From Alphaproteobacteria bacterium (GTDB taxonomy: Bacteria > Pseudomonadota > Alphaproteobacteria > Rickettsiales > SXRF01): DNA of 64,000 bases. The stretch lies in NCBI GenBank assembly GCA_020049775.1, contig JAGVLO010000004.1, positions 186,001 through 250,000 of the forward strand. The letters run 5' to 3'. Shown one piece after another: positions 1,920-49,101 of this stretch. Position numbers and translations under genes: made by a program. The notes below the pieces were generated by a model. That model was not told where the DNA came from. It was given only the letters and a program-made list of their open reading frames with translations, and searched no databases. Each line of letters opens with the position of its first letter. Position 1 is the stretch's first letter.

Positions 1920-2702
1920 ATGGCGAGTAAACTTCCCATTTCGGTTTTTATCATTGCCTTTAACGAGGCCGACCGCATAGCCCGCGCTATCGAAAGCGTG
2001 CGCGCATGGGCGGATGAGGTGGTGGTGGTTGATAGCCTAAGCACTGATGAAACAAGCAAAATAGCTGATTCGCTGGGGACGAAGGTGTTCTTCAACAAAT
2101 GGCCGGGCTATGGGCTGCAGAAGCGTTATGCCGAAGACCAGTGCAGCAATAAATGGCTGCTGAACCTCGATGCCGACGAGGAAATTACTCCCGAGCTGGC
2201 CGCAGAAATCGAAGCGCTTTTTGCAAGCGGCGAGCCAAGCATGTCCGGCTATGTGCTGCAAATCCGTGATTTGCTACCTGGCGAAGAAAAACTCGCACAC
2301 GGGGCGCACACTAATTTTGTGCTGCGGCTCTATAATCGCGAAAAGGGACGCTTCTCCGACAGCCCCGTGCATGATGCGGTGCAAATAGAGCAGGGCGGGG
2401 TGGCTATGCTGGAACAGCCGGTGTTGCACCGTTCGTTCCGCGACCTCGCGCACGCGATTGATAAAATGAACAGCTACACCAGCGCGCAGGCAAAAAACCT
2501 GATGGGCCAAAATCTAATGGGTGGGGGCATGACGCTGCCGTTACTCCGGCTGTTGACGGAATTCCCCATCGCCTTTTTCAAGGATTATGTGCTGCGCTTT
2601 TATTTCCTGCGCGGCAGACGTGGCTTTGTATATGCCGTGACCTATGCGTACACGCGCTTTGTGCGTATTGCCAAATATCTGGAACTAAAAGACCGGCCTT
2701 AA
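1920..2702 (+). CDS. Glycosyltransferase family 2 (LPS core glucosyltransferase-like)
   Basis: ISVFIIAFNEADRIARAIESV, EVVVVDSLSTDET, LNLDADEEI motifs. Confidence 0.9.
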   Translation: MASKLPISVFIIAFNEADRIARAIESVRAWADEVVVVDSLSTDETSKIADSLGTKVFFNKWPGYGLQKRYAEDQCSNKWLLNLDADEEITPELAAEIEALFASGEPSMSGYVLQIRDLLPGEEKLAHGAHTNFVLRLYNREKGRFSDSPVHDAVQIEQGGVAMLEQPVLHRSFRDLAHAIDKMNSYTSAQAKNLMGQNLMGGGMTLPLLRLLTEFPIAFFKDYVLRFYFLRGRRGFVYAVTYAYTRFVRIAKYLELKDRP

Positions 2703-2974
2703 GCCGCTTCTTCTTCGTATTCCGGAAGCATGTCCAGCGCGTGCAGGTAGGTTTCCAGCACGGTTTCCTGCTCTTCGCGTTCCTGCGCGTCCATTTTGCG
2801 CATTTTAATGATGGTGCGGATGGCTTTTATATCAAAACCATTACCCTTGGCTTCGGCGAACACGTCGCGGATATCGGCGCTGATGCCGGTTTTTTCTTCT
2901 TCCAGCTTTTCCACGCGGGCGATGATGCTTTTCAGCTGGTCAACGGCGAGGCCGCCTTTTTTCGTTTTTGCCAT
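2699..2974 (-). CDS. gapR: GapR-like DNA-binding protein (DUF2312); start trimmed to MAKTKKGG
   Basis: LKSIIARVEKLEEEKTGISADIRDVFAEAKGNGFDIKAIRTIIKMRKMD is the DUF2312/GapR signature; AGGAGA Shine-Dalgarno upstream of the ATG at 2974; the longer ORF to 3220 runs through a gene remnant. Confidence 0.92.
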   Translation of the reverse strand: MAKTKKGGLAVDQLKSIIARVEKLEEEKTGISADIRDVFAEAKGNGFDIKAIRTIIKMRKMDAQEREEQETVLETYLHALDMLPEYEEEAA

Positions 2975-3003
2975 AATACGCTCTCCTAAAATTTTTTTAT
3001 CGG

Positions 3004-3120
3004 GATATATAACTCTTAAATAATTCGTCTTCGCGCAACTCTTTTGCAAGCTGATTTTTACACTAAGATGTTCTGTCAGTGTTTCGCTGATAGTAACCAA
3101 GATGTTAGCCGCAATCTTGC
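3004..3120 (-). pseudogene. Frameshifted remnant duplicating the 3' end of the 3646-4329 gene
   Basis: About 117 nt align with 3652-3770 at roughly 80% identity by eye; translation KIAANILVTISETLTEHLSVK versus KIIANALVTISETLTEHLGVK; a one-base T-run difference shifts the frame. Confidence 0.85.
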
Positions 3121-3278
3121 CATGGGTTCGGAAAACAGATGTTCTTCGGTGTAATGTGATTCCCTCCGCTACATATAAACAATGTTCTAATAAATAATGA
3201 TTATTTGTTGCCGATACCATTTGCTGTCGCCTGAAAAAAAAGCTCTAGATTGGTATGTATAAGCCCTTCATTTTATGG

Positions 3279-3284
3279 TATAAT
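3279..3284 (+). promoter_or_regulatory. Candidate -10 box (TATAAT) for the leader/small-ORF unit
   Basis: Perfect TATAAT in a non-coding stretch upstream of the structured leader; the -35 element is not convincing. Confidence 0.4.
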
Positions 3285-3288
3285 CAAA

Positions 3289-3441
3289 GCGATTTGTTTG
3301 ATGTCTAAGTGTGAAATCGCACTGAGCGATACACGTAGCTTCAAGCTATCAGAGCCGGCATGTGCCTTTGACATTCACAGGTACGCGTGCGCGTTCTGTA
3401 GGATGTAAAAAAGGGCATGTCCTTTTTTGACGGAGGGATCC
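3289..3441 (+). promoter_or_regulatory. Structured 5' leader RNA candidate upstream of the small ORF
   Basis: Perfect 7-bp stem GCGATTT/AAATCGC (3289-3320), TAGCTT-c-AAGCTA hairpin, and AAAAAAGG-GCATGT-CCTTTTTT hairpin (3407-3428) directly before a GGAGG Shine-Dalgarno. Confidence 0.45.
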
Positions 3442-3603
3442 GTGAAAAACAACAGGAAGCCTACCCGCATCAACTTTGGTCTCATTGTGAAAGCAGTGAG
3501 CCTGGTTACGCTTTTCGGAGCGGCAGCCATAGTGATGGGTAGCATCCAGCCCCTTATTCTGTTGGGGGTGATAATCGGGGCGATCTACGTCCTGAGTAAA
3601 TAG
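3442..3603 (+). CDS. Small hydrophobic (membrane) protein, 53 aa, GTG start
   Basis: CGGAGGGATCC-GTG start; translation VKNNRKPTRINFGLIVKAVSLVTLFGAAAIVMGSIQPLILLGVIIGAIYVLSK; followed by a strong terminator; absent from the ORF track (short). Confidence 0.7.
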   Translation: MKNNRKPTRINFGLIVKAVSLVTLFGAAAIVMGSIQPLILLGVIIGAIYVLSK

Positions 3604-3612
3604 TGCAGGATT

Positions 3613-3646
3613 GGCGAGATTTCCTTCGGGAGCTCGCCTTTCTTTT
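3613..3646 (+). terminator. Intrinsic terminator with TTCG tetraloop
   Basis: GGCGAGattTCCttcgGGAgCTCGCC followed by TTTCTTTTT. Confidence 0.8.
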
Positions 3647-4329
3647 TATATTGATATATGACCCTTGAACAATTCGTCTTCACGCAACTCTTTTGCAAGC
3701 TGATTTTTTACCCCGAGATGCTCGGTTAGGGTTTCGCTTATAGTAACCAAAGCGTTAGCAATTATTTTGCTGTCCATTTTATATTCGACCAACGGACCCT
3801 TCATGGTTTTTTCGCCAGTGGTCTCACTGGTCACGGTATAGCCGAGCGCCTCATCCAGTTTTGTCAGGTGGCCGAGCATATCCAGCAGCGCGCGCTTTTT
3901 CAGAAAAGGTACGGTAGCGTCAAACGCTTCAAGAAAAGCCTTTTCCGCCTTGTCCAGATGCTCTTTGGCATGCACAAGGTCAAGGATGCGCGGGAATTCG
4001 CTGGGGTCAACAATCATGTCCGGCTCTTTGTCGCGTACGGGGGTTTCGTCTTCTTCGGGGCGCTTGCCGTCTTTCCATTTGCCCTTGCGCTTGCGTTTGC
4101 GCTCTACGCGATCTTCATGCAGTTCGCGCCGCTCACTCGGGCGCAGTTCCAGCTGGCGCAGTTGTTCGGGCGGCAGGCCTTTCAAATAGGATTGGTCATA
4201 TTCCTTGGTGTCCACAATCAGTTTGTGGTCGTCGAGGTAGGCTTCCTCGAATTGTTTGCGTAATTCGCGGATGGCCTTGCCGATGGTAGCGAAATATTCG
4301 GTATCTGCCTGTCGCTCTGGCGTATCCAT
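3646..4329 (-). CDS. Hypothetical protein, charged, coiled-coil-like
   Basis: Intact 227-aa ORF with a charged KRKRKGKWKDGKRPEED centre; its 3' end is duplicated at 3004-3120. Confidence 0.75.
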   Translation of the reverse strand: MDTPERQADTEYFATIGKAIRELRKQFEEAYLDDHKLIVDTKEYDQSYLKGLPPEQLRQLELRPSERRELHEDRVERKRKRKGKWKDGKRPEEDETPVRDKEPDMIVDPSEFPRILDLVHAKEHLDKAEKAFLEAFDATVPFLKKRALLDMLGHLTKLDEALGYTVTSETTGEKTMKGPLVEYKMDSKIIANALVTISETLTEHLGVKNQLAKELREDELFKGHISI

Positions 4330-48344: not shown

Positions 48345-48686
48345 TTAGCAGGCCTGACCCTGGTTCATCGCTATCATTGCGGCCAGCGAAGCAGCACCGA
48401 ATATCACGGAGATACCAACACCAACTACGACGGCCTGTGTCCAGGTAATACGACCAAGGGTCGCCATGATGCCGAGAATGATAATACCCAAGGTGGCGAT
48501 ACCGCGACCAATCGAGGTGTTAATTACGGCGAGCGGGATGGTACACAGGGCGTTTGACATGCCGTTAGCGCTTGCATAAACATCACCAGCGCCGATGGCT
48601 AAGCAGATGACTGCCACAAAAAACATGTACCTGCTGGCATGTACCACAAATAGTGGCGCAGCAGATGATTTTTTGGTGTTTTTCAT
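48345..48686 (-). CDS. virB2: VirB2/TrbC-family pilin, copy 1
   Basis: Signal peptide ending VYA|SANG; two hydrophobic helices IARG-like GRGIATLGIIILGIMATLGRITWTQAVVVGVGISVIFGAASLAAMI. Confidence 0.88.
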   Translation of the reverse strand: MKNTKKSSAAPLFVVHASRYMFFVAVICLAIGAGDVYASANGMSNALCTIPLAVINTSIGRGIATLGIIILGIMATLGRITWTQAVVVGVGISVIFGAASLAAMIAMNQGQAC

Positions 48687-48759
48687 TGGAGGACTCTCCT
48701 AAAAATAATACATTAATCAATTGGTTGTTTTGTCTTTAAGTAAGTAATGTTTATAACGT

Positions 48760-49101
48760 CTAACATGCCTGACCTTGGTTCATTGCTATCATCGCGGCCA
48801 GTGAAGCAGCGCCAAATATCACCGAAATACCGACGCCCACAACTACTGCTTGCGTCCAAGTAATACGGCCTAATGTCGCCATAACGCCAAGAATAATTAT
48901 ACCAAGAGTCGCGATACCGCGTCCGATCGAGGTGTTAATTACTGCCAGAGGAATTGTACATAGGGCGTTTGACATACCGTTGGCGCTTGCATAAGCGTCT
49001 CCGGCACTAATAGCGAAACAGATTAAGGCCACAAAAAGCATGTATTTTGTAGCATCTCCCCCCAGGAACTGCAGGTTTAGTTGGTTTTTTTTGTTTTTCA
49101 T
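48760..49101 (-). CDS. virB2: VirB2/TrbC-family pilin, copy 2
   Basis: C-terminal about 75 aa identical to copy 1 except one I/V; the start MKNKKNQLNLQ at 49101 makes both copies 113 aa. Confidence 0.88.
   Translation of the reverse strand: MKNKKNQLNLQFLGGDATKYMLFVALICFAISAGDAYASANGMSNALCTIPLAVINTSIGRGIATLGIIILGVMATLGRITWTQAVVVGVGISVIFGAASLAAMIAMNQGQAC

What the first reader, a model, noticed from the sequence alone, without database searches (positions are those of the whole stretch)
3004..3770. Small-gene cassette bracketed by a duplicated gene 3' end
The 3' end of the 3646-4329 gene is repeated, frameshifted and degraded, at 3004-3120 in the same orientation. Between the copies lies a self-contained unit: TATAAT, about 150-nt structured leader, 53-aa hydrophobic GTG-start ORF, and TTCG-loop terminator. 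This topology is what insertion at a gene's 3' end leaves when the gene is restored and the original end displaced, yet there is no integrase.
Basis: partly seen in the sequence, partly recalled or inferred. Interest (0 to 1): 0.72.

Follow-up and report, generated by a model that had tools for sequence, protein, structure and literature searches.

The report
Relocated small-gene unit at gene end
A small bacterial gene with its own promoter, folded leader RNA and stop signal sits at the end of another gene, between two diverged copies of that gene's tail; in the only relative available the same small gene lies elsewhere and this spot is empty, so the unit has changed place, but no enzyme that could move it was found.

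Summary
The 3' end of gene X (3646-4329, -) is repeated at 2994-3120: 88% identity over 66 nt, then 76% over 66 nt, one 1-nt deletion, stop codon kept. Between the copies lies one transcription unit with a 53-aa hydrophobic ORF. The only held congener (G001, isolate SW_32) has a single gene X directly beside gapR, 44 nt apart: an empty site. Its ORF53 orthologue (58% aa, purifying selection) lies instead at the 3' end of a patatin gene. The host's own patatin gene lacks ORF53 but carries two tandem units with unrelated small membrane-protein ORFs and a similar leader RNA (no Rfam match). So the unit changes place, always convergent with a gene's 3' end. The two gene X tails differ mostly at synonymous sites (12 of 19; 21.5% expected), so they diverged as working gene ends. 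No trace of a second full-length gene X remains. The longest identical stretch (26 nt) lies inside the repeat, not at its inner boundary where an attachment core should be. I favour acquisition from a related lineage by recombination anchored in gene X, with an illegitimate join at the other end. Integrase-type capture in trans and a truncated tandem paralogue remain possible. Two genomes only; mechanism inferred.

The parts
3646..4329 (-). Gene X, 227 aa, no known family; its 3' end is the intact (restored) copy
   Evidence: No match in Pfam, PHROGs, NCBIfam or PADLOC; orthologue in G001 at 54% aa identity
3643..3770 (-). Intact copy of the repeated 3' end
2994..3120 (-). Second, displaced copy of the gene X 3' end next to gapR: 1-nt deletion, stop codon kept, mostly synonymous divergence
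3121..3278 (.). AT-rich stretch between the displaced end and the promoter; no similarity to gene X, to the flanks of the other units or to the G001 contig
3279..3284 (+). TATAAT, putative -10 box, followed by GATTTGTT, which also follows the TAAAAT box of the two related units
   Evidence: sequence; not called by the consensus scan
3291..3441 (+). Leader RNA; conserved core 3346-3436: CTATCA, long irregular hairpin, U-run, GGAGG in a CGGA/TCCG mini-hairpin
   Evidence: no Rfam match
3442..3603 (+). ORF53: 53-aa hydrophobic protein, GTG start, predicted helical from residue 12 to 52
3613..3648 (+). Intrinsic terminator of ORF53; T-run overlaps the stop codon of gene X
   Evidence: sequence
2699..2974 (-). 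gapR; direct neighbour of gene X in the congener
   Evidence: PF10073 E 2.5e-32

Best explanation
The ORF53 unit (promoter, leader RNA, 53-aa membrane protein, terminator) is an accessory transcription unit that changed place in this genus. In this genome it came into the gene X-gapR junction together with a diverged gene X 3' end. I think a DNA piece from a related lineage, carrying a gene X tail followed by the unit, recombined with gene X by homology at one end and joined by illegitimate recombination inside the resident gene X at the other (homology-facilitated illegitimate recombination). The incoming tail completed gene X, and the resident tail was pushed downstream and then lost its frame. 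Shown: the repeat, the single uninterrupted gene X in the congener, the different place of the unit there, selection on ORF53, and the synonymous divergence of the two tails. Inferred: the donor, the direction and the recombination route. The protein's job is unknown; most likely it is a small inner-membrane protein whose synthesis is controlled by its leader.
For: Gene X stands alone and abuts gapR in G001. ORF53 lies elsewhere in G001, and the orthologous patatin site of this genome lacks it. Changes between the two tails: 12 synonymous, 7 nonsynonymous, P = 1e-4, about half the X-to-G001 difference (17% vs 35%), which fits a within-genus donor. Homology ends abruptly at about 3121 with no further gene X remnant. 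The longest exact run (26 nt) is interior, so no crossover core is evident at the boundary. The route is documented in naturally competent species and in E. coli (PMC3240628).
Against: No donor genome with gene X followed directly by ORF53 is known. HFIR needs an incoming piece already so arranged, which moves the origin of that arrangement elsewhere. Natural competence of this organism was not tested. Only two genomes bear on the question.
Confidence: 0.42

Rival explanations
1. Truncated tandem paralogue: an ancestor had two full-length gene X copies that stayed functional long enough to diverge at synonymous sites; the ORF53 unit then inserted into the downstream copy with loss of its 5' part.
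For: Explains the synonymous divergence equally well; duplications are common.
Against: G001 has one gene X copy; no remnant of the 5' part of a second copy is detectable in 3121-3345; needs duplication, deletion and insertion instead of one event.
Confidence: 0.28
2. Site-specific mobile cassette: the unit carries a gene X 3' end as attachment site and is integrated and excised by a recombinase encoded elsewhere (in trans), like islands that restore the 3' end of their target gene.
For: Topology; empty site and a different 3'-end site in the congener; units with a similar leader at another gene's 3' end; 3' ends of coding genes are known targets (trmE for SGI1, PMC8409611), and an island can bring a divergent copy of its target (recA, PMC4405046).
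Against: No recombinase among the neighbouring genes examined; no perfect core at the inner boundary (first exact runs 6 and 11 nt, the 26-nt run is interior); no target sequence shared by the two sites (gene X, patatin) was noticed; no 3'-end repeat at the G001 patatin site, though the contig ends there; unit single-copy.
Confidence: 0.17
3. Ordinary gene-order change: the unit moved by general rearrangement and the gene X tail repeat is an unrelated older partial duplication next to it.
For: The two genomes are well diverged (54-74% aa), so synteny breaks are expected.
Against: The unit is bracketed by the two tails, its terminator abutting gene X's stop codon, which is unlikely for unrelated events.
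Confidence: 0.13

Closest known systems
Integrative elements that target and restore the 3' end of a protein gene (SGI1 at trmE, dusA islands)
   Same: Insert at a gene end; gene kept whole; empty site in a relative
   Different: Those are many kb long and encode an integrase; here 0.5 kb, one 53-aa ORF, no recombinase seen, no attachment core at the boundary
recA mobile element of Vibrio cholerae S24 (PMC4405046)
   Same: Brings a divergent version of the target gene sequence that keeps the function while the resident copy is broken
   Different: 32.8 kb with phage integrase and XerS-like recombinase, 9-bp inverted repeats, proven excision; it carries the whole gene, here only the tail is repeated
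Homology-facilitated illegitimate recombination products (PMC3240628)
   Same: One homologous and one illegitimate junction; can leave a repeated anchor (inference)
   Different: Laboratory-observed events; here inferred from sequence only
Structured 5' leaders of small membrane proteins (riboswitch-like or attenuator RNAs)
   Same: Promoter, long folded leader with a U-run hairpin just before the Shine-Dalgarno site, short ORF, terminator
   Different: No Rfam family matches; ligand or regulator unknown; found in this genus only

Membership tests
Site-specific integrative element at a gene 3' end | Direct repeat of the target gene 3' end flanking the insert | tested here: met
   2994-3120 vs 3643-3770
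Site-specific integrative element at a gene 3' end | Empty site in a relative | tested here: met
   G001 C317: gene X stop at 638, gapR start at 683
Site-specific integrative element at a gene 3' end | Identical crossover core at the inner boundary of the repeat | tested here: not met
   First exact runs 6 and 11 nt; the 26-nt run is interior; later mutation could have erased a core
Site-specific integrative element at a gene 3' end | Integrase or recombinase in the element | tested here: not met
   Only ORF53 between the repeats; no recombinase family among matches
Site-specific integrative element at a gene 3' end | Same element at several sites with the same boundaries | tested here: inconclusive
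   A second site exists in G001, but its contig ends inside the leader
Site-specific integrative element at a gene 3' end | Excision or circular form | not testable with these tools
   Needs reads or PCR
HFIR insertion | One homologous junction and one without homology | tested here: inconclusive
   Abrupt loss of homology at about 3121 fits, but the homologous crossover point cannot be located without a donor
Decayed tandem duplication | Remnants of the rest of the second gene copy | tested here: not met
   No gene X similarity in 3121-3345 above shuffles
Decayed tandem duplication | Two full-length copies in a relative | tested here: not met
   One copy in G001; only one congener available
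Known Rfam RNA family | Match of the leader to a covariance model | tested here: not met

The most novel reading that the evidence does not exclude
A class of minimal mobile cassettes: a transcription unit of about 0.5-0.7 kb made of a common leader RNA, an interchangeable small membrane-protein ORF and a terminator, inserted convergently at gene 3' ends in this genus by a recombinase acting in trans, perhaps with the leader or terminator hairpin as the recognised site.
Probability: 0.1. Interest if true: 0.8.

Novelty: new variant of a known kind. Interest (0 to 1): 0.46.

Why it matters
If the units really move, they would be among the smallest gene-carrying insertions that leave a repaired target gene behind, without an integrase of their own. 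The leader appears on two unrelated kinds of small membrane protein and is in no RNA library, so it may be a new regulatory RNA whose target genes change while the RNA stays.

Tried and rejected
Rfam on the window unit and on the related units: nothing. ORF53 relatives: none beyond G001 in one genome for each of about 85,000 species, in viral contigs or in 344 genomes of the order (the weak rows at E 0.004-0.01 were not pursued). MSSK proteins and units: none in phages, plasmids, viral contigs or the order. Leader pattern in family genomes: only the four real leaders; the other hits, judged by what follows them, were not leaders of small ORFs. 17 viral pattern hits: none with the leader fold plus a suitable ORF. 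RNA models over the order: only G000 and G001 plus two weak hits that lie inside coding sequence. A 19-nt match between the patatin 3' end and cobD (L009 2536 / 4075) was set aside as coding chance. The PHROG 'superinfection exclusion' match of MSSK1 covers only its lysine-rich transmembrane part and was not used. MAFFT could not align the two leader types by structure, so no covariation statistic for the whole family is claimed.

Full report
What is there. The window is G000:C10:186001-250000 of a 2.54-Mb, 15-contig genome; gapR and the title of its congener's record (isolate SW_32, Alphaproteobacteria) place it in the Alphaproteobacteria. Gene X (3646-4329, -) has no known family. Its 3' end is repeated next to gapR at 2994-3120: 88% over 66 nt, then 76% over 66 nt, with a 1-nt deletion and the stop codon kept. 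Nothing comparable repeats in the window except the VirB2-like genes, the S1 domains of rpsA and a 31-nt pair.

Between the copies lies a unit: TATAAT at 3279-3284, leader, GTG ORF of 53 codons at 3442-3603, and a TTCG-loop terminator at 3613-3638 whose T-run runs into gene X's stop codon. The leader and ORF fold better than shuffles (z -4.9; leader alone, z -2.8). ORF53 is single-copy, hydrophobic, and predicted helical from residue 12 to 52 (pLDDT 84). It has an orthologue at 58% aa identity in the only held congener, G001, with synonymous changes in excess (29 of 59, 25% expected, P = 7e-5), so it is a working gene.

Place in the congener. G001 has gene X (54% aa) followed after 44 nt by gapR, with nothing between. 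Its ORF53 lies on another contig, convergent with the 3' end of a patatin gene. The patatin orthologue here (74% aa) has no ORF53. In its place, also convergent, stand two tandem units with 122-aa and 106-aa ORFs, here called MSSK1 and MSSK2. These are related to each other (27% aa) and not to ORF53 (tested with MSSK2). The units therefore changed place, and both places are gene 3' ends. G001 is a 74%-complete MAG, but the contig with ORF53 also carries the dehydrogenase-patatin order found here, so it belongs.

The leader. The leader of ORF53 and those of the MSSK units share CTATCAG, GGCA-n-TGCCTTT, ACAGGT and TCTGT, a long irregular hairpin ending in a U-run (weak in MSSK2), and a GGAGG set in a short CGGA/TCCG hairpin right before the start codon (the mini-hairpin is read from the sequence). 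Local similarity of the ORF53 and MSSK1 leaders scores 31, above all 2000 shuffles (maximum 25); ORF53_G000 against ORF53_G001 scores 25 (4 of 2000 shuffles reach it); but G001's leader against MSSK alone is not significant. A covariance model of MSSK1 finds the G001 leader at the right place at E 0.11, and a model of the two ORF53 leaders ranks the MSSK1 leader first after its own members at E 0.32; the MSSK1 model did not find the window's own leader. Common descent of the two leader types is therefore likely but rests on few sequences. No Rfam family matches, and no further member was found in family genomes, 344 genomes of the order or viral contigs.

How the repeat arose. The two gene X tails differ at 19 aligned sites, 12 synonymous against 21.5% expected (P = 1e-4); by codon position the differences are 5, 2 and 12. 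They differ by 17%, against 35% to G001. So they diverged while both were working gene ends, not by decay after a duplication. Homology stops at about 3121 and no rest of a second gene X is seen. An integrase crossover should leave its core at that inner boundary; the runs there are 6 and 11 nt, and the 26-nt run lies inside, although later mutation could have erased a core. Homology-facilitated illegitimate recombination with DNA of a related lineage fits all this in one event and needs no integrase (PMC3240628). A truncated tandem paralogue needs more events. Known 3'-end islands (SGI1 at trmE, PMC8409611) and the recA island with its divergent recA (PMC4405046) have a like topology but carry recombinases.

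Function. From anatomy alone: a leader-controlled small inner-membrane protein. The hairpin with U-run just upstream of the ribosome site, and the site's own mini-hairpin, suggest control of transcript elongation or of translation start. This is inference; no ligand, regulator or phenotype is known.

Verdict. The integrase-type mechanism is not shown. Evidence rests on two genomes.

Noticed in passing
L009 2713-3078 and 3410-3727 (-), i.e. G000:C3 about 42.7-43.7 kb: Two tandem small-ORF units with GC3 of 0.98 and 1.00, while nine other genes of this genome had GC3 0.34-0.67; their leaders and terminators are nearly identical but the ORFs only 27% aa identical; no relatives found in any collection searched.
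   Followed up: partly
48345-49101: Two tandem TrbC/VirB2-type pilin genes (PF04956), 79% identical over 300 nt, near rpsA.
   Followed up: partly
L003 959-1837: The congener has an IPP transferase (MiaA-like) gene between gapR and the glycosyltransferase; here those two genes overlap with nothing between.
   Followed up: no
2699-3220 (-): The displaced gene X tail lies in an open frame that runs in frame into gapR (173 aa in all); whether it is translated is unknown.
   Followed up: no
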